Below are positions 6,267-19,392 of a DNA stretch of 64,000 bases, piece after piece; within the stretch, counting starts at the first letter, position 1; every line of letters begins with the position of its first letter. Under the pieces are notes generated by a model. The model was given only the letters and a program-made list of their open reading frames with translations, did not search any database and was not told the origin of the DNA. A program made the position numbers and the translations under genes. The DNA lies in the NCBI GenBank assembly GCA_900696685.1, contig CAADHA010000084.1:26405-90404 (forward strand), in the 5' to 3' direction. Origin of the DNA: an uncultured Planctomycetota bacterium (GTDB taxonomy: Bacteria > Planctomycetota > Phycisphaerae > Phycisphaerales > UBA5793).

Positions 6267-8572
6267 TCGGATTCTCCTTCCGCCGAGACGGCGAGTGCTC
6301 CGACTGCCGCGGACTCGCCGCGACAGACGAGTTGGACCAGATGGTTCACGGATTTCGATGAGATGGGGATGAGCAACGCGGCCGCGAGGCGCTGGGCGCG
6401 GCGCGAGTCCATTGCCCCCTCGGACCAATTGTCGTCTCGCATCACGCCGGTGGGCAATGGGCCCGGCATCGGCGCCAATCCGGACACCCGGAGTCGCTGG
6501 GCGGCAATGCGGCACGCCTCGCCGACGCGCCCGGCGCGGAGCAAAGGCAGGATGCGCGGCTCGGGACGGATGGTCAGCCCGTTTTCCATGCGGCCGCCCT
6601 CAAGCCGGCGGGCAAGTCGCCACTTGACAGCTTCTCTCTCCCGCTCGGGTACGAGCGGTCGTGGCAGGAACACGAGTTTCAGGAGGGCGTATTCGCGCGG
6701 TAGCGGGTTGGGATCGGCTCGCTGATTGTCGCGGCTCTGCTTCATGCCGGCATGGGCGGGATGCCGGCGCCGGGGGTCGATCAGCATCAGGCCCCAGATC
6801 AATTGCTCGATGCGTTCGTCGTCGAGAACGGCGTTGATGAACGCGGCGATCGCATCGAGCGGTGCGGCATCGCGGGAGGCGAGCGGCAGACGTTCGCAGC
6901 CGGCGCGGGCGCCGTCCATCACGCGTCGCGCGAGGACGCTGACCAGATTGGTGGCCAAATCCGCAGCTTGCCAGACGACCGAACGGTCCTTCTCCGCCCA
7001 CGCCCGATAGCGCTTCCTCCAATCCGCGGTTTCGAGATTGGTCCTTAGTGGACCGATCCGGCCCTCGGCATCCTGGACGTCGGCGATCCCCCGCGCGACG
7101 GTGAACTCATCCGTGCCGTCGCTGGCGGCGTCGAACCAGGCCGACGACAAGCCAACGAGCGGATTGAGTCTCTTTTCCTCGCGGAACCGCTCGGCGCTGG
7201 CCAGCTCACGCTCGGCTGCCCCCAGCGCGATGATGATCCGCTGGAAGAAGGTCTGGCCGCCGTACTTGCAGAAATCGAAGATCGCTGAGTCGATGCGGCG
7301 AAGGGCTGAACCAAACCGCGGCGGCGAGTTCTTGTCGCCGGCGGCCCGACGAAATCGCTCAAGCCACGGATCGACCTCCCGGAGAAGATCGACGCCGCTG
7401 CGCTCGACGACCTCAAACCGTCCCAGAGGCGCGGCCAGGAATGCTTTACCGCTGCGCTTAAGGAACCCGAGCCGGTTGAATCCTGTGATGCCGCGGTCAA
7501 CGCCGAGCCCCGCCACAGCGCGGGCAAAGTCGGCGCCGTCCCGTGCCGCACGGCCGGAGATGTCTGCCCGACCCTCGCCGAACAATTGCCGGAGTTCGCT
7601 AGCGTTTGTCGGGCGGGTCCAGAGCGGCAACCACAGCTCGCCTCGTGACTCCGCTTCATCCTTGGAAGCAGGCGAATCGAATCCGGCGGCGACAGTGCGG
7701 ACCATGAACGGGAACGTGGCTCGCGACGAGTCCGGGAGGCCGAACCGTCGCACGGCGGCTCCTGCAAGCATCAGCGCGCCTTCAAGCATAAACACGAAGT
7801 CCCACGGATTGTCGCTCGAATCGCCTTCCATGCCCTGCGTGGCGTTTGGTCCGCCTGCGCGACCGGGCGCAAACTGGCCAACGCTGGCCGAGTTGAGCTT
7901 TGTTGGTGATGCAAATAATGCTTGGGCGAGCCATGCCCGCGATTGGTCGCTCGGCTGCTCATCCTTGTGCAAGCCGAGGGAGACGATCCGCTGCATGAAG
8001 TTCTGTGTGAAATCGAGACGCCCGTCGTTGCCGCCTGTGCCGAGCAGAGGGGCAAACCGCTGGCCGTCCTGCTGAACAACCATCGCGGCGTCAATCCACG
8101 CGATCACGTCATCGGGCAGTTCGCGGCGGTAGCGACGGATCAGACGATCCTTGTCGTCGTCCTTCGGCTTATCGCCGACATTCTCCTCCCTGAGGGTTGC
8201 TTGCACGCTCGGGATCACCGTCTTGTAGAGGTCGGCGCGAGTCGATGTGCTCCCGGCCAACTCTTCTACCGCTTTCTTGTTGTCCTTCTCGAAGAATCCA
8301 GACCCCCCGGCCCATGGTGCCACGATCGGTGTCGGCTTGTATTTCTCCAGGAAGAACCTCACCAGCGCGTCGCGCTTCGCTTGGTCTGTCCCCGCGTCCC
8401 GAAACAGCTTCGGCGACCACAGCCAAAATACATCGTTTCTCCACCACCCCCGGGCCTCGGCATCCACTTGTTCGCTCACTAGGCGCAGGATGCCCAGGGC
8501 CTTCAGGTACGCCATCAGCGGTTCGGGGGTGCAGCCCGGCAGTTCAAGGTCGAAGCGCGGCGTTTCAGCCAT
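6263..8572 (-). CDS. csx17: Type I-G Cas8 large subunit (Csx17/Cas8u2)
   Basis: A 769-residue protein of the Csx17 family, the large subunit that should recognise the PAM and organise the I-G Cascade. The start at 8572 (MAETPRFDLELPGCTPEPLM) overlaps the cas3 stop by 8 bp. Typical features are the N-terminal ELPGCTPEPLMAYLKALGIL, a WWRNDVFWLWSP segment, and the glycine-rich FAPGRAGGPNATQGMEGDS near residue 260. No separate cas11 gene is visible. It lies between cas3 and csb1, as in other I-G loci. Catalytic residues are not expected; the assignment rests on sequence character and gene order. Confidence 0.93.
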   Translation of the reverse strand: MAETPRFDLELPGCTPEPLMAYLKALGILRLVSEQVDAEARGWWRNDVFWLWSPKLFRDAGTDQAKRDALVRFFLEKYKPTPIVAPWAGGSGFFEKDNKKAVEELAGSTSTRADLYKTVIPSVQATLREENVGDKPKDDDKDRLIRRYRRELPDDVIAWIDAAMVVQQDGQRFAPLLGTGGNDGRLDFTQNFMQRIVSLGLHKDEQPSDQSRAWLAQALFASPTKLNSASVGQFAPGRAGGPNATQGMEGDSSDNPWDFVFMLEGALMLAGAAVRRFGLPDSSRATFPFMVRTVAAGFDSPASKDEAESRGELWLPLWTRPTNASELRQLFGEGRADISGRAARDGADFARAVAGLGVDRGITGFNRLGFLKRSGKAFLAAPLGRFEVVERSGVDLLREVDPWLERFRRAAGDKNSPPRFGSALRRIDSAIFDFCKYGGQTFFQRIIIALGAAERELASAERFREEKRLNPLVGLSSAWFDAASDGTDEFTVARGIADVQDAEGRIGPLRTNLETADWRKRYRAWAEKDRSVVWQAADLATNLVSVLARRVMDGARAGCERLPLASRDAAPLDAIAAFINAVLDDERIEQLIWGLMLIDPRRRHPAHAGMKQSRDNQRADPNPLPREYALLKLVFLPRPLVPEREREAVKWRLARRLEGGRMENGLTIRPEPRILPLLRAGRVGEACRIAAQRLRVSGLAPMPGPLPTGVMRDDNWSEGAMDSRRAQRLAAALLIPISSKSVNHLVQLVCRGESAAVGALAVSAEGESE

Positions 8573-11288
8573 TGGCTCCCTCCTTCCCGGACGCACCCGC
8601 GGACGACGAGATCGGCCCGGCGGCAGCCTGCTCCGCTGTCGCCGGCCGATCGGCCGCGATGCTGGCACGCATGTCCGCCGCGCGGAGGATCGCCTCCAGG
8701 TACGCCAGGCGGAATGGGCCCAGCGTATCGCGCAGGCGGATCATGCGCTCGGCCCACGACGGCTGACCCGCGAACGGCGGCTGCTCGCACAGGCCCATTT
8801 CCATCGGTTCCAGCGAAAAGGTCACGGCCGGTGCAGTGACGCCGTCGCCCAGGTCGGTCACGGGGAGCATGTCGCCGTCCCACACGCCGCGGGCGAAGCG
8901 CTTCTGCGGCGCTCGATTGCCGTTACCGTCGCGCGGACGAAGCTCATTCGGGAGCGAGCGGATCGACAAGCGCACTTTGCCATGATGGGCGGCTACGAGA
9001 TATGCCACGAGGTTCAAATCTTCATCGGTCAGCAGCTTGAGGTGATCGTGTGGTCGCTGAAGCACCGCCAGCGCTGAGGCCAACTCATGCCGGAAGTGCC
9101 GGCGTTTGTAGCGCTTCCACTGACCTACTGCCTTGGCCCAGGCCATTTCTGCATCAGGGACATCGTCGGGTAATGCGGCCCGAAACACCTCATGGGCCTT
9201 GCCCCAGTCGTGCCAGCGTGCAGAGAGCCGTAACATCTCTGTCTCGGCGAGTTCCAGCACTGCAAGTATGGACTCAAGCTCCGTGCATACTTCGTTCGTG
9301 TGCTGAGCGATGGTTTGCCACACACCGACGCGAGAGAGAATATCAGCATCTGCTCCATCGAGAGTTTTCCGTTCTGAAGTGGGAAGCTCTATAGGTGTGA
9401 CATGCCCCCCATTCGCTGGAGTCCATCCGATCTTCGCGGAGTATCCACCGGCGTCAGCATGAACCAAGTACACCTGGCCCGGCACAATCTTCGCCGCGTC
9501 AGCTTTCTCCCACGATTCGTCGAGGAAGTTCCATCGCCAGACTTGGCCTCTGTGCTGCTTCGTGAATTCGCGGAAGTCGGCGACCGGTGACGGGCAGAGT
9601 TCTTGTCGGCACGGCGCCGGTTCACTCACCGGAGGTGCTTCGTGGCCCTTGGGTCGATTCCATGCGCGCCAGAACACGCGCACATCTGAATCTTCAATCT
9701 CGCGGACGAAGCGGTCGATGTCGATGTCGTTGCCGGCTAGGTCCGGCGTTGTGTCGAACAGGTCGATCAGGTCTCGCTGGCGAATGACGTGCGTATGCTC
9801 GTACGGAAACAGCGCCGCCTGGTCTTCATCGCTTAACTTCTCTCTATGCGCTGCCAGAGAGCCGAGGCCGACGTCGTTCAGCTTCGCCAACTGTGCCGCG
9901 GCGCCGCGAAGATCGTTGAGCCCGTACGGAAGGCGCAGCTTCTCCGCGTCCTGATCCTTCACAGGCAGATCGATCCACTTCACGCAGGCATGCTCGTTCT
10001 GCTCGCCGCGCCGATTGCACCGCCCGAATCGCTGTACCAGCGACGCCCACGGCGCCAGTTCAGTGAACAACGTGGTCGCATCGACATCGACGCCCGCCTC
10101 AATCACCTGCGTGCTGACAACAATTGTTCCCTTCCCTGAAGGTTCGGCGAGCGCAGCCTCGACCGCCGTGGCGCGGTCTGTCGGCCTGAATCGGGAGTGC
10201 AGCAAGACGTACTCGGGCTGGTCATCGGATGACGCGCCCGCCGATTCCTGCGGCGCAGCTTTCTTCCGGCTCGTGCCTCTGGTCTTGCCAGCATTCGCCA
10301 GGTTCATCAACGCGTCGAACAGCTCACATGCCCGCCGCACGGAGTTCACAACCACGATCGTCCGCGTGCCGGGCCGATGTGCGTCCACAATCTCCTTCGC
10401 CAGGCCCTCAGCGTAACCTATTGCCGACTCGGCTTTCTTGAGCGGCTTCGACGCGTTCCAGCGCTGCTTAACTTGCTCGTCCTTGTGATCCTCAGCGATC
10501 AACGAGAGTTGCGCCAGACCGTCCACGCGATCCTTGAAGTCTACGGTCTCGAGCCAGTTCGGGTGCATCGTCGCGGACATCCACACGCTGTGGCATCCGT
10601 GGCCGTTCATCGCTTGGGGTGATTCAATGGTAGGTAGACACCGACGAAACGCCTCCAACTGCGCCGTCGTTGCCAAGCCGCTGCCCATGAGCTGGATTTC
10701 ATCGAATACCCACAGGCAGTCAGTGTGCAGCAGACCGAACTGCATCGGCCAGCGCGAGCGACTCGCCGCGTAGCCACGATTGAGCGCCCGCGACAAGAGC
10801 ATGTCCTGCGTGCCGATGATGATCGCTTCGCGCTCCGGGTGGGTGTCCCAATCGTCCTCCTCCTCGCCGCCCATAAGCACGTACACCGCGACTTTGTCGG
10901 GTTCGAAAGCGCTCGACGCGTACGTCGCAACGCGGTGGTTCAGCGTCGCTGACTCGCCAGCGCTCGGCGGCAGATCGAACGTCACATCACCGCCCAAGCG
11001 GCCCAGGTTGTGCAGCCATCGAATGGCGTTGTCCCGCGTCTGCTCCACGAGAACCCGCATGGGTAGGCAGTACACCAGCCGGCGCGGCGTCTGGCGGCGA
11101 ACCTCATCGCCCGCCCCGAACCGGCGCCACAGCCAGCCGAGTATGGCCATTGCTGTCTTGCCCAATCCGGTGGGCACGGTCACGAGTGACTGTAGCTTGT
11201 CTTTGAACTCGCATTGAAACGGAAACGGCGCAGCCCCACTTGTCGCGCTCTTGAAGAAATCTCTGAATGACTGTTCGGCGCGGCCCAC
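8565..11288 (-). CDS. cas3: CRISPR helicase-nuclease Cas3, helicase then HD
   Basis: A 907-residue effector nuclease-helicase that would unwind and degrade target DNA after Cascade binding. The superfamily 2 helicase comes first: Walker A VPTGLGKT at residues 38-45, DEIQ at 196-199, and motif VI QRFGRCNRRGE near 440. The HD nuclease is C-terminal, with the His-Asp pair in RWHDWGKAHE at 693-694, a second HH at 768-769 and a late Asp in LRAAD near 872. This order, reversed from most Cas3 proteins, is characteristic of subtype I-G. It starts with GTG after GGGAGAG and its 3' end overlaps cas8 by 8 bp, so cas3-cas8-csb1-csb2 form one translationally coupled unit. Confidence 0.96.
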   Translation of the reverse strand: MGRAEQSFRDFFKSATSGAAPFPFQCEFKDKLQSLVTVPTGLGKTAMAILGWLWRRFGAGDEVRRQTPRRLVYCLPMRVLVEQTRDNAIRWLHNLGRLGGDVTFDLPPSAGESATLNHRVATYASSAFEPDKVAVYVLMGGEEEDDWDTHPEREAIIIGTQDMLLSRALNRGYAASRSRWPMQFGLLHTDCLWVFDEIQLMGSGLATTAQLEAFRRCLPTIESPQAMNGHGCHSVWMSATMHPNWLETVDFKDRVDGLAQLSLIAEDHKDEQVKQRWNASKPLKKAESAIGYAEGLAKEIVDAHRPGTRTIVVVNSVRRACELFDALMNLANAGKTRGTSRKKAAPQESAGASSDDQPEYVLLHSRFRPTDRATAVEAALAEPSGKGTIVVSTQVIEAGVDVDATTLFTELAPWASLVQRFGRCNRRGEQNEHACVKWIDLPVKDQDAEKLRLPYGLNDLRGAAAQLAKLNDVGLGSLAAHREKLSDEDQAALFPYEHTHVIRQRDLIDLFDTTPDLAGNDIDIDRFVREIEDSDVRVFWRAWNRPKGHEAPPVSEPAPCRQELCPSPVADFREFTKQHRGQVWRWNFLDESWEKADAAKIVPGQVYLVHADAGGYSAKIGWTPANGGHVTPIELPTSERKTLDGADADILSRVGVWQTIAQHTNEVCTELESILAVLELAETEMLRLSARWHDWGKAHEVFRAALPDDVPDAEMAWAKAVGQWKRYKRRHFRHELASALAVLQRPHDHLKLLTDEDLNLVAYLVAAHHGKVRLSIRSLPNELRPRDGNGNRAPQKRFARGVWDGDMLPVTDLGDGVTAPAVTFSLEPMEMGLCEQPPFAGQPSWAERMIRLRDTLGPFRLAYLEAILRAADMRASIAADRPATAEQAAAGPISSSAGASGKEGANG

Positions 11289-11403
11289 GCTTCTCTCCCG
11301 GAAGTCTCCGGAACGTGATGAATCGCTCGGAAGCGATAGTCTAACGTGGCCTAACGATCCGCAAAAGAGTTTCGAGAAACCTGTGAAATCAGGAATAGAG
11401 CGG
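11289..11403 (-). promoter_or_regulatory. cas2-cas3 intergenic spacer with small hairpin
   Basis: The only sizeable gap inside the cas gene string (115 bp) separates the adaptation genes from the effector operon. It contains a perfect 6-bp inverted repeat (ATCGCT and AGCGAT around a 4-nt loop, about 11,325-11,340) without a T-run. An independent promoter for cas3 is plausible, but I see only a weak candidate. Confidence 0.35.
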
Positions 11404-11694
11404 TCAAATGACCACGACTCCGCACTCTTGTTCCGGCAGCGACGAGCCTAGAACCGTTGCCGACTCGCGGGCGGTCTCCTCATTGGCGCCTAAGTCCACG
11501 ATTAACACCTGATCCACCTTGAGGTTGACGACCTCACGGAGTGCATTCTCCAATCGGACGCGATCGATGGGCTTGAGCGTGCAGTAGAAAACCGAGTATT
11601 GCCACGCTTCGCCGTAGGCCTTCATCAGCTTGTGCGTTCGGCGGAGGCGCTTAGGGTCGCGGATGTCGTAGCAGACGAGATAGCAGCGGCGCAT
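11404..11694 (-). CDS. cas2: CRISPR adaptation protein Cas2
   Basis: A 96-residue Cas2, the ferredoxin-fold dimer that bridges Cas1 dimers in the spacer-integration complex. The start chosen is MRRCYLVCYDIRDPKRLRRT. The conserved beta-1 Asp of Cas2 is D10 in YDIRD, followed by the expected WQYSVFYCTL strand and the LIVDLG strand. The 12-residue in-frame extension upstream is rejected because homologues begin at this point. It lies 43 bp downstream of cas4-cas1 on the same strand and 115 bp before cas3. Confidence 0.96.
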   Translation of the reverse strand: MRRCYLVCYDIRDPKRLRRTHKLMKAYGEAWQYSVFYCTLKPIDRVRLENALREVVNLKVDQVLIVDLGANEETARESATVLGSSLPEQECGVVVI

Positions 11695-11737
11695 CTTGAA
11701 GGCTCCTTGCCGGCGAAACGCCGGCACCACCTGACCT

Positions 11738-13579
11738 TCATCGAGTCGTTAGGAAGGCCAGGGTCGGCACCTCGCCGAGCAGCCAGGCGGCGATCAGCCG
11801 CGCGTGCAGCATGATCATCCGGCGGTAGCTCAGGCGGTACTCGAAGACCGGATGCGTCACCTCCGTGTCCATCCGCCGGCCGTAGGCTGAGAAGAACGCT
11901 TTGCGGCCGGCATCGGTCAGTGCACAGCCCGCGTCGGTGTTGAGGAAGTGCCCCTCGACGAGTTCCGCACGATTGAACCCCGATACGGCGACCGAATCTG
12001 CGATCAGCGGTCGGAACGGTTCCATCAAGTCCAATGCCATCGCCGGGCGGCCGGGGCGCGTGGCGTGAAGCGCCGCAAGCGTTGGTTCCAGACTCGCCAA
12101 TCGGCAGGCCGCGGTGCACTCGTGCGTGAGCATCGAGTATGCGAACGACAGGACGGCGTTGATCGGATCGGGCGGCGGCCGCCGCTGACGACCGTTTGCG
12201 TCGAACCGGGCGGCGATCTCCTTCACGCCCTCCTTGAACATCCCCGCGAAATGTCGGAAGTAGATGGCAGCCGCGTTGCCTTCATGGCCGCGAAGCTCGT
12301 CCAACGTGGCGGCGCGTTCGGCGGAAGCGACGCAATCCTGAAGGTCGGCCGCTGCCCGTGACGGCAGGCCGGAGTGGTTTCGCATCAGGAGCGTGCGCTG
12401 ATTGGCGATCTTCGCTACGGTGACGGCGCGGGCGAGTTCCAGCGATTTTTCTGGTCGATCCAGCACCCGGACCTGCGCAGCGCGGACGGCGGCGCTGGTT
12501 GGGCCCAACGGGTCCATTATGGCGGTCAGTCTGCCAGCGGCCGTGAGGAAGGCGACTGGCACCTCCTGCTCCGCGAAGATAGCCAGCGCCTGCGTGGAGA
12601 TCTGCACGCCGCCCACGACCGCAAGCGACTCAACGTTTGCGAGCGGTAGTTCCTTGACCACGTCGCCGTCCTTGTCGGTGATCCGCACGGACTGGCCACG
12701 CACACCGACGCGGACGCCCTGGCGTTGGAGCACGACGTGGATGCCGTCATCACGCGGGGGCCAGAGTTTGCGGGGCGTGAGCTGTTCATCGACCGGCTGG
12801 CCGGCCACGGTCATCGCTGTGAATCGCTGGTGGTTGACCTCGTCGGGCAGGCAGATCGGTTGAAGCGAGCAACGCGGGCAGCGCGGATCGTTGACCAGCG
12901 GCGGCGGCCGCGGCCCGACTGCGTCGCGCTTAGCGGCTTCGAGTTCGGCCAGCGCATCGCTTCGCAGAACGTCATCGACCGACACGCGCAGCCGAAGTCG
13001 CTCCGCCGAATAATACAAGTACGCTTCAGGTACGATGTACCCGGCCTCCTCCAGGAGCAGCACCTGGAGGCCGAGTTGCACCCGATCCGTCGGCCAGGGC
13101 TCAGGGCCAAGGAGCAGAGGCAGTTGTTCCATTAACTCGTCGACAGCCCCGGCGACTTGGCTGCCGCCGCTTCGGCACGGCCGCCCCTTGCGGTATTCGA
13201 CCGGAACCGCGACGTTACCATTGATCTCGGCGAGGTCGAGCGTCGCGGTCAGTCCCAGCCGCCGGCTCGTGAGCGCCAAACTCCGAACAGAGCGTGGACG
13301 GTTGGAGTCGCTGTCGCTTTCTTCCAGTTTCTCGATTGTCTCGCGCTCCCTTGGGCGTTCCCGTGCGGCTGGTTCTGCGGACGCGGCGCTTGGCCGGTCG
13401 ACGCGCCGATGGATCCCCTTGCCTTGTTCGGTATCGGCACTGGGCGCAAAGATACCTTCCACCGTCATGTAATAGAAGAGCCGAGGACAATAGGCGTGCT
13501 CGGCGACCCCGCGAGCTGGCCAAAGTTCCTGATCCACTAAGGGTTCATCGGTCCAGGCCGTCGAGTTGGTAACCTCCAT
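11738..13579 (-). CDS. cas4-cas1: Cas4-Cas1 fusion protein
   Basis: A 613-residue fusion of the PAM-selecting Cas4 nuclease and the Cas1 integrase, as usual in type I-G. The Cas4 part (about residues 15-250) has the four iron-sulphur cysteines C31 (AYCPRLFYY) and C234, C237, C243 (CPRCSLQPIC). It also has RecB-type residues H57, D115 (TATLDLAE), E128/K131 (PVEYRKGRP) and Q172. The Cas1 part (about 275-613) has metal ligands E433 (GHEGNAAAIYF), H505 (LAALHATRPG) and D517/E520 (MALDLMEPFRP). It is the first gene of the cas string and diverges from the unknown pair starting at 13,996. No strong ribosome site precedes the ATG. Confidence 0.96.
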   Translation of the reverse strand: MEVTNSTAWTDEPLVDQELWPARGVAEHAYCPRLFYYMTVEGIFAPSADTEQGKGIHRRVDRPSAASAEPAARERPRERETIEKLEESDSDSNRPRSVRSLALTSRRLGLTATLDLAEINGNVAVPVEYRKGRPCRSGGSQVAGAVDELMEQLPLLLGPEPWPTDRVQLGLQVLLLEEAGYIVPEAYLYYSAERLRLRVSVDDVLRSDALAELEAAKRDAVGPRPPPLVNDPRCPRCSLQPICLPDEVNHQRFTAMTVAGQPVDEQLTPRKLWPPRDDGIHVVLQRQGVRVGVRGQSVRITDKDGDVVKELPLANVESLAVVGGVQISTQALAIFAEQEVPVAFLTAAGRLTAIMDPLGPTSAAVRAAQVRVLDRPEKSLELARAVTVAKIANQRTLLMRNHSGLPSRAAADLQDCVASAERAATLDELRGHEGNAAAIYFRHFAGMFKEGVKEIAARFDANGRQRRPPPDPINAVLSFAYSMLTHECTAACRLASLEPTLAALHATRPGRPAMALDLMEPFRPLIADSVAVSGFNRAELVEGHFLNTDAGCALTDAGRKAFFSAYGRRMDTEVTHPVFEYRLSYRRMIMLHARLIAAWLLGEVPTLAFLTTR

Positions 13580-13850
13580 GCTGGAATCTGCGATTGCCAG
13601 CGAACATCATCGGTCTGACGTTGTTAACGCCATCGATTTGGGACTACGAATGTGACCGAGCATCCGTTTCAACACTGGTACGACAAAACGCTTCGGCAAG
13701 TCAGGCACCATCAGCGGATGGTTAACGGGTTCGAGTGTTCCGACCATAATTACCGGAGTTTTTCATGTAAATTAGGCGTCAATAGAGGAACCCGTTTCGG
13801 ACGGATTCGGCAGGCAATTATCGGACATCGCTTCACCGATGTGGGGGGGC

Positions 13851-13879
13851 TTGACTTGAACCGAACATTAACCTAATCT
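13851..13879 (+). promoter_or_regulatory. Sigma70-type promoter for the unknown gene pair
   Basis: TTGACT (13,851-13,856) and TAATCT (13,874-13,879) are separated by exactly 17 bp, a near-consensus housekeeping promoter pointing right. Transcription would start near 13,886, leaving a 5' leader of about 110 nt. Confidence 0.65.
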
Positions 13880-13887
13880 CGTCCCTG

Positions 13888-13905
13888 ATCCGCCCGTCGG
13901 CGGAT
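13888..13905 (+). promoter_or_regulatory. Perfect 7-bp hairpin at the predicted transcript 5' end
   Basis: ATCCGCC and GGCGGAT flank the tetraloop CGTC. It begins within a few bases of the predicted transcription start, so it would cap the leader RNA of the unknown pair. It could stabilise the transcript or bind a repressor; no T-run follows, so it is not a standard terminator. Confidence 0.4.
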
Positions 13906-13995
13906 GCCAGCCGTAAGGTCGCCGAGCCTGGTCAAGGAATTGCGCGTCAGCGGACGACGCGGCTCGGTGTCTGTTTTGTCTCGGAGGAGACGAAG

Positions 13996-15162
13996 ATGGC
14001 GCGGCAATATTCTGCAAAGACTTTTCTGCGAAACGTACCCAACACTCTGCTCGAAGAATACTTCAAGCGGCGAGGAATCGACCTCGGATTCCGTTGGAGC
14101 CACCTGCACGAGACCGATGTTGATCCCGTCTTCCTGGCCCTCGAAAAACTGCCTGACCAAACTCGCGGCGAGATCGACACCGACTTCCGGATGATCAACG
14201 ATCTGTGCAGCGCCGCCGGCGTACTCAGCATTCTCGATCATGCGACGCTTTGGCAGCAGGACCTTGGGGATCGCTTCGCTTCGATGAAGAACGCCTACGA
14301 GCGGGCATTCTGGACATTTCTGAACGAGCCGCATCATTTCCGAGTCGCGGGCAACTTTCACGAGATGGATCGTCGAGGCGGGTGGCACCGACGCGCAGTC
14401 GGTCAAGCGATTGAACCGCTAACCGACGCGGACACCCGAAATGCCCTACAGGACCGCCTGCGCCTGATCTATCGTCGTCAAGGTCGGGGCAAGTACTGCC
14501 ACGTGGATTATTACTTTCGTCACTTTCCCGACCGCCATTGTTTCTTCGCGTACCCCGAGGATCACGCAGACACCGACCTTGGATTTGACGAGAAGGGACG
14601 GCTGCAGCAACGCGCCCGACGATCGGCCTTTGAAATCATCTTTGTGTATCGCCCGGACGAGGGCATGCTGGAACTTCATGCGCGCGGTAAGAGGAAAGAG
14701 ATCATGCAGCTCGAGACGGCGTTTTGCGAGGTCGTTCTTGGCTTGGATGAGTTGCCCAGCGATGGCTACATCCCATTCGACATGCGAATCCTGAAGGACC
14801 CCACCTTCTCATTCCCAACGGAGGCGGAGGATCGAGTTGCCACGGTTGATATTCGGCAGCTGCGTTTTGACGTGGTTGGGGTTTCTAACGAGCGGATTAC
14901 GTTCTCGGTTTCTCCTCGCGGAAGTGAGCCAGGGGCCCTTCATCAACTCATCGATCGGTCAATTCACAAGAGCAAATTGCCACTAGACGAATTGACGGTC
15001 TCTCAGGCCAGGATTCGATTCACCTTCGAGCCGGTGAACGGAGAACGCCCAAAAACGCTGACATTCGAAGTGTCTCATCCGGACCGTTGCTCGCTGCGAG
15101 ATGACCCACATGACCAGATCGCCAAGAAGTACCTAAGGCGGTGGGGGATTGCACATGGATGA
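13996..15162 (+). CDS. Protein of unknown function, first gene of island pair
   Basis: A 388-residue soluble protein. I have a general impression of similar proteins in other bacterial islands but cannot name a family. The start follows an excellent GGAGGAG site 8 nt upstream. The N-terminal half is helical (TFLRNVPNTLLEEYFKRRG). The centre has an aromatic, histidine-rich patch (KYCHVDYYFRHFPDRHCFFA, then YPEDH) followed by AFEIIFVYRPDEGMLELHAR, which looks like a beta-rich fold. The C-terminus ends in basic residues (IAKKYLRRWG). No transmembrane segment, helicase motif or obvious nuclease signature is visible, although the HxDYYFRHF/YPEDH cluster could be a metal or nucleotide site. It overlaps the next gene by 8 bp, so the two products probably act together. 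Confidence 0.85.
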   Translation: MARQYSAKTFLRNVPNTLLEEYFKRRGIDLGFRWSHLHETDVDPVFLALEKLPDQTRGEIDTDFRMINDLCSAAGVLSILDHATLWQQDLGDRFASMKNAYERAFWTFLNEPHHFRVAGNFHEMDRRGGWHRRAVGQAIEPLTDADTRNALQDRLRLIYRRQGRGKYCHVDYYFRHFPDRHCFFAYPEDHADTDLGFDEKGRLQQRARRSAFEIIFVYRPDEGMLELHARGKRKEIMQLETAFCEVVLGLDELPSDGYIPFDMRILKDPTFSFPTEAEDRVATVDIRQLRFDVVGVSNERITFSVSPRGSEPGALHQLIDRSIHKSKLPLDELTVSQARIRFTFEPVNGERPKTLTFEVSHPDRCSLRDDPHDQIAKKYLRRWGIAHG

Positions 15163-16407: not shown

Positions 16408-17082
16408 CTAGCGGGTGGATGATCGATTCCATTGCATCGCATCGGTGAGTGGTTTCTTTACCAGGTCCGGCACGCGGCAATTTTCGGCGGGATAACCGAC
16501 GGGGATGAGCAGGTAGGGCTTTTCATTCTCCGGGCGACGGCAGATGTCGCGCAGGAAATTCATCGGGCTGGGCGTGTGTGTAAGCGTGGCGAGACCGAGC
16601 TGGTGACACGCCATGAGAAAAAAGCCGGCGGCCAGGCCGGCGCTCTCGATCGGGTAGTAGTTCTTCACGCGGCGGCTGTCGATTTCCTCCCAGTCAATAC
16701 GAAAAATGACAACGAGCCAAGGGGCGACTTCGAGGAAGGGCTTTTTCCATGTGGTGCCGATGGGTTCAAGGGCGTCGAGCCATTCGCGGGGCATGCGATG
16801 GTCGTAGCTCTCCTTTTCTTCATGCTCGGCGGCGATACGGATTTCGCGCTTGATCGTGAGATCGTCGATGGCGACGAAGCGCCACGGCTTGCGATTCGCG
16901 CCGGATGGCGCACTGTGAGCGATGGCGATGGCCTGTTCGATGAGATCGCGCGGAACGGGCTTCGGCGAAAAGTCGCGGCAGCTTCGCCGCTGCTCCATCT
17001 CGACCAGCAACTCACGGGCGCGGTGCACCTGCCACGTGGGATCGCGCGGTGTGAGGGTGTATGGAACGAGCTTGGGCGGCAA
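16408..17082 (-). CDS. Nitroreductase-family flavoprotein, iodotyrosine-deiodinase type
   Basis: A 224-residue FMN-dependent oxidoreductase of the nitroreductase fold. RRSCRDFSPKPVP, then SAPSGANRKPWRFVAI, and W-x-KPFLEVAPWLVVIF are the FMN- and substrate-lid segments typical of the iodotyrosine deiodinase/BluB-like branch, so reductive dehalogenation or a related reduction is more likely than nitro-drug reduction. The substrate cannot be told. The reading frame starts with TTG after AAGGG; an internal ATG at codon 29 is an alternative. It lies 114 bp downstream of the selenoprotein on the same strand and may be co-transcribed. It converges on the island-end fragment. Confidence 0.85.
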   Translation of the reverse strand: MPPKLVPYTLTPRDPTWQVHRARELLVEMEQRRSCRDFSPKPVPRDLIEQAIAIAHSAPSGANRKPWRFVAIDDLTIKREIRIAAEHEEKESYDHRMPREWLDALEPIGTTWKKPFLEVAPWLVVIFRIDWEEIDSRRVKNYYPIESAGLAAGFFLMACHQLGLATLTHTPSPMNFLRDICRRPENEKPYLLIPVGYPAENCRVPDLVKKPLTDAMQWNRSSTR

Positions 17083-17196
17083 GAGTAACCCTTGAATGAC
17101 GAATCACGAACTACAGAAGGGCAACGACCACAGGACCTGTGACCGTTGTACGGGCCCTCCCTCTTTCGTCATTAGTAATTCGACTTTCGACGTTTC

Positions 17197-17421
17197 TTAC
17201 GCTTTCGGCTTGATCTGGTTGATCACCTCGTAGGGTTCGGGAAAGCGGCCTTCCTTGTGCTTGCTGAAGATCATTTTGCCGTCCACGACGACATCGAAGA
17301 TACCGCCGCGGCCCTCGATCATCTGGGGCTTGACGCCGATCTCCTCCTCGATGAGCTCCGCCAAACTGGCGGCCTTGGGGAGGTAGTTTCACTGTACGCA
17401 GTAGGTGATGGAAATCTTCAT
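17197..17421 (-). CDS. SelW/Rdx-family selenoprotein with in-frame UGA (Sec)
   Basis: A 74-residue thioredoxin-like protein that plain ORF calling misses because codon 11 is TGA (17,391-17,389). Read as selenocysteine, the N-terminus is MKISITYCVQ-Sec-NYLPKAASL, giving the C-x-x-U redox motif (C8, U11) of the SelW/Rdx family. It continues with LAELIEEEIG, then IEGRGGIFDVVVDGKMIFSK and HKEGRFPEPYEV, all characteristic of Rdx proteins, and ends at TAA. GGAGG lies 9 nt before the ATG. The family usually has a CxxC or CxxU pair at this site. The length is normal for bacterial Rdx proteins. A candidate SECIS hairpin follows the UGA. Its role is thiol redox; the partner is unknown. Confidence 0.88.
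17358..17372 (-). promoter_or_regulatory. Candidate bacterial SECIS hairpin
   Basis: On the mRNA strand CCGCCA and TGGCGG form a 6-bp stem around the loop GTT. The loop G is 23 nt downstream of the UGA. Bacterial SECIS elements lie just 3' of the UGA inside the coding region and carry a G near the start of a small apical loop, which this hairpin does. Confidence 0.65.
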
Positions 17422-17640
17422 CGTAACAGTCCTCCGACTCAGTTGGTTTCTCTTATTCTATCTCACAGCGCACGAATCGCCAAGTTTCACACCATCCGAG
17501 CCCGGAGCGCGAGCAACGGGTGGGACGCAGGGACCAGAGTAGGGAAATTGAGTTGCGGATTGGGGAACACTTCGAATGCGGAACGGGGTAGGCCGAATGA
17601 GCTTGGCGGTACTGGGCACCCGATTTAGAGAAGCGACGCG

Positions 17641-19392
17641 TCAGATTTCAACCGCGATGTCTGCCACTTGTGCGGGCTTTCTGCGTGCGACAGCCGCCTT
17701 GACGAGGCCAAGGAAGAAGGGATCGGGCCGCAGGGGGCGGCTGGTAAGCTCGGGGTGGGCCTGGGTGGCGATGAAGCAGGGGTGAACATCCTGCGGAAGT
17801 TCGAGAACCTGCATGATGGGGAAGTCGGGGGCCTTGCCTGAAAAGACGAGTCCGCCGGCTTCGAGCTTGTCGATGTAGCGAGGATCTACCTCGTAACGAT
17901 GGCGGAATCGCAGGCGAACTTCCGGTGCGCCGTTGAAGAGGCGCGAGGCGAGGGTGCCGCTTTTGAGCACCACGTCGTGGCCACCGAGGCGCATGTTGCC
18001 GCCGAGGCCTTCGATCTGCTTCTGCTCCGGGAGGATGTCGATGACCGGGTGCTTGCACTCGGCGCTGAATTCCGTCGAGCCGGCGCCGTCGAGGCCACAG
18101 ACGTTGCGGGCGAACTCGATGACGGCAAGCTGGAAGCCGTAGCAGAGGCCGAGGTAGGGCAGGCCGGTGGTGCGGGCATGGCGGATGCAGGATATTTTTC
18201 CTTCGACGCCGCGTGCACCGAAGCCGCCGGGGACGATGAGGCCGTCGAGATGGGCCAGACGATCGGCGACGTCTTCGAGGGGGATGTCGCTGACTTCGAT
18301 CCAGTTGATTTCGACGGCCGCGCCGCAGCGTGCGCCGGAATGTTCGAGGGCTTTGATAACGGAGGCGTAGCTGTCGCGCACGCTCGTGTACTTGCCGGCG
18401 ATGCCGATCGTGACGCGGGCGTCCACCTTTCGCAGCCGAGTGAGGTAGTCGTTCCACAGGGCGCGGGCTTTATCCTCGGCTTCGACGTGGACACGCTCCT
18501 GTATGCCGAGTATGTCCACCACGGCCTTGTCGAGGCCGGCCTCGCGGATCATCTCGGGGATGACATAGATGGATTCGCGGTCGTGCATGGAGAAGACGCG
18601 GTTGAAGGGAACGCTGGAATAAAGGGCGATCTTCTCGCGGACCTTGTTTGAGACGGGCTGGATGGCGCGGCAGGCGATGATGTTCGGTTGAATGCCGCTC
18701 TGGAGAAGCTGCTTGATGCCGAGCTGGGCGGCTTTGGATTTCTGTTCGCCGAGGGCCGGTGGCTGGAGGACGTAGGTGAGAGCGACGAAACAGGTGCTGC
18801 CTTGGCCTTCCTCGAAGGCGAGCTGTCGCAGGGCCTCGATGTAGTAGGCGTTTTCCACGTCACCGACGGTGCCGCCGATCTCGATGAAAACCACGTCGGC
18901 ATCGCTGGAGACTGCGAGCTGGCGGAGCTTGCTTTTTACTTCGCCGGTGACGTGGGGAATCATCTGCACATCGCGGCCGAGGTAGTTGCCGCGGCGTTCC
19001 TTCTCCAGCACGGCGGAGAATATCTGTCCGCTGGTGGAGAAGTTCATGCGGGTCATGTTCTGGTCGAGCATGCGCTCGTAGGTGCCGAGGTCCATGTCGC
19101 ATTCCATTCCGTCGTCGAGGACGAATACTTCGCCATGGCGGAATGGGTTAAGCGTGCCCGAATCGAGATTCAGATAGCCCTCGAGCTTGATGGGTGCGAC
19201 GGTGAGGCCCTTGTCCTTGAGGACGCGTGCGAGACTGCTGGCGAAGATGCCTTTGCCGAGGCCGGACATGACCGTGCCGAAGACGCCGACGTATTTTGTT
19301 TTTCCCGGCTTGTAACCGGGCGGCATCGGCGTATAGAACTCGGTCTCATCGGAAACGGCTGCCAGGGACGTGAGGGCATCTTGCGGGTTCAT
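17641..19392 (-). CDS. pyrG: CTP synthase
   Basis: A 583-residue enzyme converting UTP, ATP and glutamine to CTP. The synthetase domain has the P-loop SGLGKG (residues 43-48), HGEVFVLDDG, IEIGGTVGD and ERRGNYLG. The class I glutamine amidotransferase domain has nucleophile C417 in LGLCYGFQ and the H546/E548 pair in QAHPE. The start at 19,392 (MNPQDALTSL) is chosen because the 125 upstream in-frame codons are unlike the family. The sequence departs from the common form: GTVMSGLGKG for GGVVSxLGKG, KLEGYLNLD for KLDPYINVD, and GFQ for GMQ. This suggests a deep-branching CTP synthase. It converges on nothing upstream and is divergent from the hydrolase gene. Confidence 0.95.
   Translation of the reverse strand: MNPQDALTSLAAVSDETEFYTPMPPGYKPGKTKYVGVFGTVMSGLGKGIFASSLARVLKDKGLTVAPIKLEGYLNLDSGTLNPFRHGEVFVLDDGMECDMDLGTYERMLDQNMTRMNFSTSGQIFSAVLEKERRGNYLGRDVQMIPHVTGEVKSKLRQLAVSSDADVVFIEIGGTVGDVENAYYIEALRQLAFEEGQGSTCFVALTYVLQPPALGEQKSKAAQLGIKQLLQSGIQPNIIACRAIQPVSNKVREKIALYSSVPFNRVFSMHDRESIYVIPEMIREAGLDKAVVDILGIQERVHVEAEDKARALWNDYLTRLRKVDARVTIGIAGKYTSVRDSYASVIKALEHSGARCGAAVEINWIEVSDIPLEDVADRLAHLDGLIVPGGFGARGVEGKISCIRHARTTGLPYLGLCYGFQLAVIEFARNVCGLDGAGSTEFSAECKHPVIDILPEQKQIEGLGGNMRLGGHDVVLKSGTLASRLFNGAPEVRLRFRHRYEVDPRYIDKLEAGGLVFSGKAPDFPIMQVLELPQDVHPCFIATQAHPELTSRPLRPDPFFLGLVKAAVARRKPAQVADIAVEI

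What the first reader, a model, noticed from the sequence alone, without database searches (positions are those of the whole stretch)
17197..17421. Hidden selenoprotein: SelW/Rdx protein with UGA at codon 11
Reading the minus strand through TGA at 17,391-17,389 gives a complete 74-residue Rdx protein with the C-x-x-U motif, a GGAGG ribosome site and a TAA stop. A hairpin with a G-starting loop follows the UGA at bacterial SECIS distance (17,358-17,372). Standard gene calling would miss or truncate it. It implies that the organism makes selenocysteine.
Basis: partly seen in the sequence, partly recalled or inferred. Interest (0 to 1): 0.75.

Follow-up and report, generated by a model that had tools for sequence, protein, structure and literature searches.

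The report
Selenocysteine SelW protein hidden by stop
This DNA, likely from a planctomycete bacterium, holds a small SelW/Rdx gene interrupted by a TGA codon that is very likely read as the amino acid selenocysteine; it is an ordinary new member of a selenoprotein family already known from many bacteria, and databases store most of its relatives as cut-off fragments.

Summary
Confirmed, with one correction. The minus strand 17421-17197 encodes a 74-residue Rdx/SelW protein with one in-frame TGA at codon 11 (CVQ-U). A sequencing error is excluded: 79 of the 80 best-matching places in named species genomes have TGA at this column. The hairpin 17372-17358 fits the published bacterial SECIS model. 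Its two pairs that join third codon positions have the largest pairing excess of 2,415 third-position pairs (88 of 88 sequences paired), with changes on both sides, so it is very likely a real RNA element.

Correction: the assembly holding the window has selD-selB-selA-selC, but the window's contig is very probably mis-binned there (its pyrG is 62-64% identical to two same-genus genomes; the bin's other pyrG is 86-89%). That cluster does not show what the window's organism makes. Relatives are the better evidence: selA occurs in 49 of 50 genomes carrying this UGA gene, and the closest named one (Planctomycetota PLA2) has selA, selB and tRNA-Sec.

SelW-like selenoproteins were the most abundant family in two marine surveys, and their being missed in annotation is in print. 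New member of a known kind; low surprise.

The parts
17197..17421 (-). SelW/Rdx coding sequence, 74 residues plus TAA, read through one TGA
17389..17391 (-). TGA, predicted selenocysteine codon 11
   Evidence: conserved in 79 of 80 matched places
17389..17400 (-). C-x-x-U redox motif (CVQU)
   Evidence: aligns with CxxC in five solved Rdx chains
17358..17372 (-). SECIS hairpin, stem CCGCCA/UGGCGG, loop GUU
17431..17435 (-). GGAGG, likely ribosome binding site
   Evidence: sequence
17197..17364 (-). 55-residue TTG-started ORF that table-11 gene calling gives instead
   Evidence: 18 of 21 database relatives lack the CxxU segment
16408..17082 (-). nitroreductase-family gene directly downstream
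   Evidence: PF00881 92.9 bits; beside SelW also in L031
17641..19767 (-). pyrG upstream (longest ORF; homology starts further in), ends in TGA as a stop; used to test the binning

Best explanation
The gene at 17421-17197 (minus strand) encodes a SelW/Rdx-family protein whose in-frame UGA at codon 11 is very likely decoded as selenocysteine, predicted to be directed by the SECIS hairpin at 17372-17358. Inferred steps: SelB carrying Sec-tRNA (anticodon UCA) would bind the hairpin, whose loop has a G followed by U, and deliver Sec at the UGA 21-22 nt upstream of the loop. The product would be a small thioredoxin-fold thiol/selenol oxidoreductase with a C-x-x-U redox centre; its substrate is unknown. 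Shown: the reading frame, the family, the conservation of UGA, the co-varying hairpin, and Sec machinery in relatives. Not shown: Sec in the protein, and Sec genes in the window's own organism.
For: Rdx domain 69.3 bits over a 22.6 cut-off; TIGR02174 CXXU_selWTH 62.6 over 34.2. All 9 Rdx copies found in 61 genomes (own and 60 relatives; 8 genomes have Rdx) carry exactly one TGA. 79 of 80 matched places in named species genomes carry TGA at this column, although the search pattern lay elsewhere in the protein and the query had Cys there. Phylum sample: 139 of 150 listed Rdx matches have one TGA (hand count). No other in-frame stop in codons 2-65 in 81 of 81 sequences, and third-position-biased variation on both sides of the UGA. 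Hairpin: 95.3% of cells paired against 21-56% for slid versions, 23 double-change cells against 2.3 shuffled; its two third-position pairs rank 1 and 2 of 2,415 by pairing excess. It meets the bSECIS constraints quoted in PMC13188914 (passages): loop 3 or 5 nt, G then U, 6 or 5 bp, spacing 22 or 21 nt, -9.9 kcal/mol. selA in 49 of 50 genomes with the UGA gene; selA (E 1e-60 or better) in 125 of 137 phylum genomes with a listed TGA-Rdx against 117 of the other 255. Closest named relative: selB beside selA, tRNA-Sec UCA.
Against: The window's contig is very probably mis-binned, so Sec genes of its own organism were not seen. 12 of 137 TGA-Rdx genomes show no selA (completeness 59-92%), and 1 of 50. 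Rdx paralogues with Gly at this column exist, and by eye two of them (L140, L141) could still form most of the stem. Single-sequence folding is weak. In one search the slide by -1 has nearly as many double-change cells (21 against 23) and the slide by +3 more pairs with a double change (4 against 3), and 19 of 500 shuffles reach the observed 3 pairs. By mutual information the two pairs rank 1 and 3, not 1 and 2. Columns 22-32 fail to pair in 24 of 88. NF041051 is missed by 1.5 bits. Rfam finds nothing here. No protein data.
Confidence: 0.95

Rival explanations
1. The TGA is a real stop or a sequencing/assembly error, and the gene is a pseudogene or is expressed only as the 55-residue fragment from TTG 17364.
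For: By table 11 the open frame begins at TTG 17364, and 18 of 21 database relatives lack the segment with the motif.
Against: The same TGA stands in 79 of 80 matched places from separate genomes. The codons before the UGA vary mostly at third positions, the region before the start does not. The fragment lacks the C-x-x-U motif. The hairpin co-varies at synonymous sites.
Confidence: 0.02
2. The organism reads TGA as an ordinary amino acid (for example Trp as in table 4) throughout its genome.
For: Three of 21 database proteins show Trp at this column (P0005, P0009, P0010).
Against: The neighbouring pyrG ends in TGA (17643-17641), 17 residues past the end of the TIGR00337 match. Only the one TGA occurs in codons 2-65 of the SelW frame in 81 of 81 sequences. 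The SECIS hairpin and the link to selA have no role under this reading. The Trp entries are most simply table-4 translations of the same UGA (inference; their DNA was not seen).
Confidence: 0.01
3. The window's contig truly belongs to the assembly G000, which would then have two SelW paralogues and two pyrG genes, one set gained by horizontal transfer.
For: The assembly lists both. Composition overlaps partly: the first 20 kb of C84 correlates 0.895-0.934 with other bin contigs, about as with the rest of C84 (0.896-0.919).
Against: Window pyrG is 62-64% to G001 and G002 of the same genus, while the bin's other pyrG is 86.4 and 88.5% to them (in G003 and G004 pyrG is split in two pieces, 60 and 76-78% to the window). 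Window SelW is 42-47% to the genus's four SelW copies, the bin's other copy 72-84%. GC 60-64% against 65-68% and mostly lower tetranucleotide correlation. The bin is 4.23% contaminated. Weak: the 90%-identity cluster of the window's pyrG reaches a contig of 295,236 bases, longer than C84's 90,404.
Confidence: 0.06

Closest known systems
Bacterial SelW-like selenoproteins (CxxU; Pfam Rdx PF10262, NCBIfam TIGR02174)
   Same: Same family, same Cys-x-x-Sec motif, UGA followed by a bacterial SECIS inside the coding sequence. 48 genes, the most abundant family, in the Sargasso Sea data (PMC1088965, passages); 427 in the GOS survey (PMC2398784, passages).
   Different: No defining feature. Here in a likely planctomycete; PMC2398784's main text has no occurrence of 'planctomycet'.
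Epsilonproteobacterial SelW (NCBIfam NF041051 SelTWH_Campy)
   Same: Highest NCBIfam score (86.5 bits, residues 3-71); SelW genes there were also missed in annotation (PMC4607533, passages).
   Different: Falls 1.5 bits short of the curated cut-off of 88, so it is not counted as a member of that narrower group.
Solved Rdx proteins: Atu0228 (2fa8), SAV_2001 (3dex), human C17orf37 (2ljk), selenoprotein W (2npb)
   Same: Homologous by profile (E 3.9e-14 for 2fa8, 1.1e-5 for 2npb); the Sec column aligns with the second Cys of CxxC in the five alignments printed, which do not include 2npb.
   Different: The five printed chains have Cys at that column.

Membership tests
SelW-like (Rdx) selenoprotein | Rdx domain over the curated cut-off across the whole protein | tested here: met
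   PF10262 69.3 vs 22.6 bits, residues 2-71; TIGR02174 62.6 vs 34.2
SelW-like (Rdx) selenoprotein | C-x-x-U motif with in-frame UGA at the second redox position | tested here: met
   CVQU at codons 8-11; column aligns with Cys of CxxC in five solved Rdx chains
SelW-like (Rdx) selenoprotein | UGA conserved in orthologues | tested here: met
   79 of 80 matched places, the 80th (L091) having a TGA sibling; 9 of 9 copies in own genome and relatives
SelW-like (Rdx) selenoprotein | Selenium in the protein; redox activity | not testable with these tools
   Needs expression and mass spectrometry
Bacterial SECIS element | Loop 3-9 nt, upper stem 4-16 bp, G in the first two loop positions, 16-37 nt from UGA, -7.5 kcal/mol or lower (PMC13188914, passages) | tested here: met
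   Triloop GUU with 6 bp or pentaloop AGUUU with 5 bp, 22 or 21 nt, -9.9 kcal/mol
Bacterial SECIS element | Stem kept by compensatory change | tested here: met
   one of six pairs (columns 22-32) fails in 24 of 88 sequences
Bacterial SECIS element | Bound by SelB and required for Sec insertion | not testable with these tools
   Needs a reporter or binding assay
Sec-decoding organism | selA, selB, selC, selD in the same genome | tested here: inconclusive
   All four in assembly G000 on C48, but the window's contig is probably mis-binned. Closest named relative has selA, selB, tRNA-Sec; its selD was not searched
SelTWH_Campy (NF041051) | Score over the equivalog cut-off | tested here: not met
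   86.5 bits, cut-off 88

The most novel reading that the evidence does not exclude
The selenoprotein SelW and the nitroreductase-family flavoenzyme encoded directly downstream (16408-17082) form a redox pair: the flavoenzyme is the missing reductase or partner of a bacterial SelW, linked in this Phycisphaerae-like lineage.
Probability: 0.05. Interest if true: 0.5.

Novelty: new member of a known kind. Interest (0 to 1): 0.22.

Why it matters
It adds one more lineage to a well-known selenoprotein family and shows, with 88 sequences, co-variation of a SECIS stem at synonymous sites. Practically it warns of two traps: SelW genes are stored as fragments or with Trp at the Sec codon, and Sec machinery found in 'the same genome' may belong to another organism when the contig is mis-binned.

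Tried and rejected
Rfam scan of 16800-17800 at E up to 10: nothing. Folding energy as sole evidence for the hairpin: weak (z -1.06, -1.88, -0.27 for the window, -0.70 for L001), so co-variation was used instead.

Two SelW paralogues in one organism: my first reading, rejected after the pyrG comparison. The sel cluster on C48 as proof for the window's organism: rejected for the same reason; its selD, selB and selA are 64-83% identical to those of G001 and G004 of the same genus, so it fits the bin.

tRNA-Sec by Rfam score alone: rejected. In G000 two of three matches over the gathering score are tRNA-Ser by ARAGORN, and one of 13 is tRNA-Leu; only ARAGORN-confirmed ones are counted.

Conserved gene neighbourhood as a clue to function: of 80 loci (flanks up to 3 kb, shorter in some) only L031 has a match to the nitroreductase (82%) and none to pyrG; not general. 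Other selenoprotein genes in the window: 32 TGA codons pass a loose C..U/U..C filter, 17391 being one; the other 31 were not pursued.

Controls without Sec: the Cys and Gly paralogues were too few and too distant for a quantitative SECIS control; by eye L140 and L141 (Gly) could still form most of the stem. L117, L129 and L134 (TGA copies) do not fit the hairpin in this register. None of the loci from then on was in the co-variation set, and the pattern printed only part of L111-L137 and not L144. In 11 of 81 sequences the codon aligned with the start is not ATG, GTG or TTG, so their starts lie elsewhere.

Literature: SelW with Planctomycetota and selenoprotein gave 0 papers; Phycisphaerae with selenocysteine gave 2, seen as a listing only; PMC5029168's main text has no occurrence of SelW or planctomycet.

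Full report
1. The observation. On the minus strand an ATG at 17421 opens a frame that meets TGA at 17391-17389 (codon 11) and ends with TAA at 17197; read through, it gives MKISITYCVQUNYLPKAASLAELIEEEIGVKPQMIEGRGGIFDVVVDGKMIFSKHKEGRFPEPYEVINQIKPKA. GGAGG lies 9 nt before the ATG. Under the bacterial code the open part of this frame is a 55-residue fragment from TTG 17364. The product matches Pfam Rdx with 69.3 bits (cut-off 22.6) and TIGR02174 CXXU_selWTH with 62.6 (cut-off 34.2); NF041051 is missed by 1.5 bits.

2. Is the TGA real and conserved? In 79 of the 80 matched places the column is TGA. The 80th, L091 (a Myxococcales MAG), matched a TGT copy and has a TGA sibling 236 bases upstream. 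Among 61 genomes (own and 60 relatives) 8 have Rdx, 9 copies, all with exactly one TGA. In 392 genomes of the phylum 143 have Rdx; 150 matches are listed (the match column sums to 165 by my addition), 139 with one TGA and 11 with none by my hand count. Of those 11, the ones I read have Cys (2) or Gly (6) at the column. Of 81 sequences checked none has another stop in codons 2-65; third positions vary most both before the UGA (0.545) and after it (0.478 and 0.592), while the stretch before the start is equally variable at all three positions (0.72-0.73). This excludes a sequencing error and makes a pseudogene untenable.

3. How the databases treat it. Of 21 database proteins found, 18 begin downstream of the CxxU segment; the other three (P0005, P0009, P0010) have Trp at the Sec column. 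I take the Trp to be table-4 translation of UGA; their DNA was not seen.

4. The SECIS. UGA is followed at 17372-17358 by CCGCCA-GUU-UGGCGG. The model quoted in a 2026 review (PMC13188914; passages only) asks for a 3-9 nt loop, a 4-16 bp stem, G in one of the first two loop positions often followed by G or U, 16-37 nt spacing, and -7.5 kcal/mol or lower. Here: 3 or 5 nt, 6 or 5 bp, GU, 22 or 21 nt, -9.9 kcal/mol. Against its own shuffles the folding energy is unremarkable (z -1.06, -1.88 and -0.27). Co-variation is the stronger test. On 89 sequences (window, 8 from own genome and relatives, 80 from the species scan; 88 distinct) 95.3% of cells pair, against 21.2-55.9% for slid versions, with 23 double-change cells against 2.3 in shuffles. 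Less favourable rows of the same call: 19 of 500 shuffles reach the observed 3 pairs with a double change; the slide by -1 has 21 double-change cells and the slide by +3 has 4 such pairs; columns 22-32 fail to pair in 24 of 88. Two pairs join third codon positions. Among all 2,415 pairs of third positions in the gene these two have the highest excess of pairing (z 10.5 and 9.5; the next is 4.75; by mutual information they rank 1 and 3), with 88 of 88 sequences paired, in C-G, U-A, G-C, A-U and G-U combinations; one of the 89 sequences was dropped because its stretch was short. Such third-position changes are mostly synonymous, so a protein constraint does not explain them; related sequences share changes, but the other pairs carry the same relatedness. 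Three TGA copies outside this set (L117, L129, L134) do not fit the hairpin in this register, so some family members seem to use another form.

5. Sec machinery, and a correction. The assembly in which the window lies (G000, 4.3 Mb, 215 contigs, 4.23% contamination) has selD (itself with an in-frame TGA, NCAGUAG), selB, selA and a tRNA-Sec with UCA anticodon together on contig C48, and a second TGA-containing Rdx on C75. But the window's contig C84 very probably does not belong to it. The window's pyrG is 62-64% identical to that of G001 and G002 of the same genus, whereas G000 has another pyrG on C133 that is 86.4 and 88.5% identical to them; in G003 and G004 pyrG is split in two pieces and was not compared with C133. 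The window's SelW is 42-47% identical to the genus's four SelW copies, the C75 copy 72-84%. GC is 60-64% on four C84 pieces and 65-68% on pieces of C133, C75 and C48; tetranucleotide correlation is 0.953-0.973 among the latter, 0.832-0.934 between them and C84 pieces, and 0.873-0.960 within C84, which alone would be only suggestive. Among the 120 listed database relatives of the window's pyrG, those with a named organism are Phycisphaerae, Phycisphaerales, or Planctomycetota, and the cluster of the window's own sequence reaches a contig of 295,236 bases. So the C48 cluster shows what the bin makes, not what the window's organism makes.

6. Indirect evidence for the window's organism. selA is over the cut-off in 49 of 50 genomes that carry this UGA gene (50 of the 80 were submitted). 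The one without, G452, has tRNA-Sec. Of 13 genomes searched for tRNA-Sec 12 have it, confirmed as UCA by ARAGORN, and G429, which lacks it, has selA. In the phylum sample 125 of 137 genomes with a listed TGA-Rdx have selA at E 1e-60 or better, against 117 of the other 255 (Fisher p about 1e-20, genomes not independent). G063, whose only Rdx has Cys, has no selA at that threshold. The closest named relative, Planctomycetota PLA2 (L031: SelW 78-79%, nitroreductase 82%), has adjacent selB and selA and a tRNA-Sec on another contig. Its selD was not searched. A Planctomycetota record with pyrG at 88% (DCC65_18490) may be the same MAG; that was not checked.

7. Mechanism. Ribosomes reaching UGA codon 11 would meet SelB-Sec-tRNA held by the hairpin just downstream and insert Sec; the product would use Cys8 and Sec11 as a redox pair on a thioredoxin-like fold. 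The fold follows from profile matches to solved Rdx proteins (2fa8, E 3.9e-14; 2npb selenoprotein W, E 1.1e-5), in which the Sec column aligns with the second Cys of CxxC in the five alignments printed; no model was folded here. Redox use is inference and the substrate is unknown. That TGA otherwise serves as a stop is shown by pyrG, which ends in TGA.

8. What is known. SelW-like selenoproteins with CxxU were the most abundant family in the Sargasso Sea data (48 genes; PMC1088965, passages) and head the list of the GOS survey (427; PMC2398784, passages). A 2006 survey noted few or no Cys homologues of SelW-like in Sec-using organisms (PMC1794560, passages), in line. SelW genes completely missed in annotation were reported in Epsilonproteobacteria (PMC4607533, passages). 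Sec insertion genes and selenoproteins are known in planctomycetes (PMC4807772, passages). So this is a new member of a known kind. A search for SelW, Planctomycetota and selenoprotein together gave 0 papers; that covers open-licence papers and exact words only, and is no claim of novelty.

9. The most novel reading left open is that the nitroreductase gene directly downstream (16408-17082) is SelW's partner. Beside the window it was seen next to SelW in L031 only, of 80 loci, so I give it 0.05.

Noticed in passing
window 1-64000 (G000:C84:26405-90404): The contig is very probably mis-binned in its assembly: window pyrG 62-64% to G001 and G002 of the same genus while the bin has another pyrG at 86-89%; GC and tetranucleotides differ.
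   Followed up: yes
L091: 2789 and 3025: A Myxococcales MAG carries two SelW genes in tandem, the first with TGA and the second with TGT (Cys) at the same column.
   Followed up: no
L138-L143 (G203, G388, G327, G383, G188, G363): Rdx paralogues with Gly in place of Sec (C-x-x-G) in genomes of the phylum that also hold a TGA copy.
   Followed up: partly
L117, L129, L134, just after the TGA: TGA copies whose sequence does not fit the common hairpin; by eye a stem some bases nearer the UGA seems possible.
   Followed up: no
G000:C48:30682-35380 (L022): selD (with its own in-frame TGA), selB, selA and tRNA-Sec in one cluster of the bin.
   Followed up: partly
window 11738-13579 (-): A Cas4-Cas1 fusion gene (Pfam Cas_Cas4 and Cas_Cas1); a repeat search of 7000-14200 showed no CRISPR-like array, only one two-copy family.
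   Followed up: partly
window 17083-17196: The 114-base gap between SelW and the nitroreductase gene holds an inverted repeat seen by eye (AATGACGAA ... TTCGTCATT); no tool was run on it for this.
   Followed up: no
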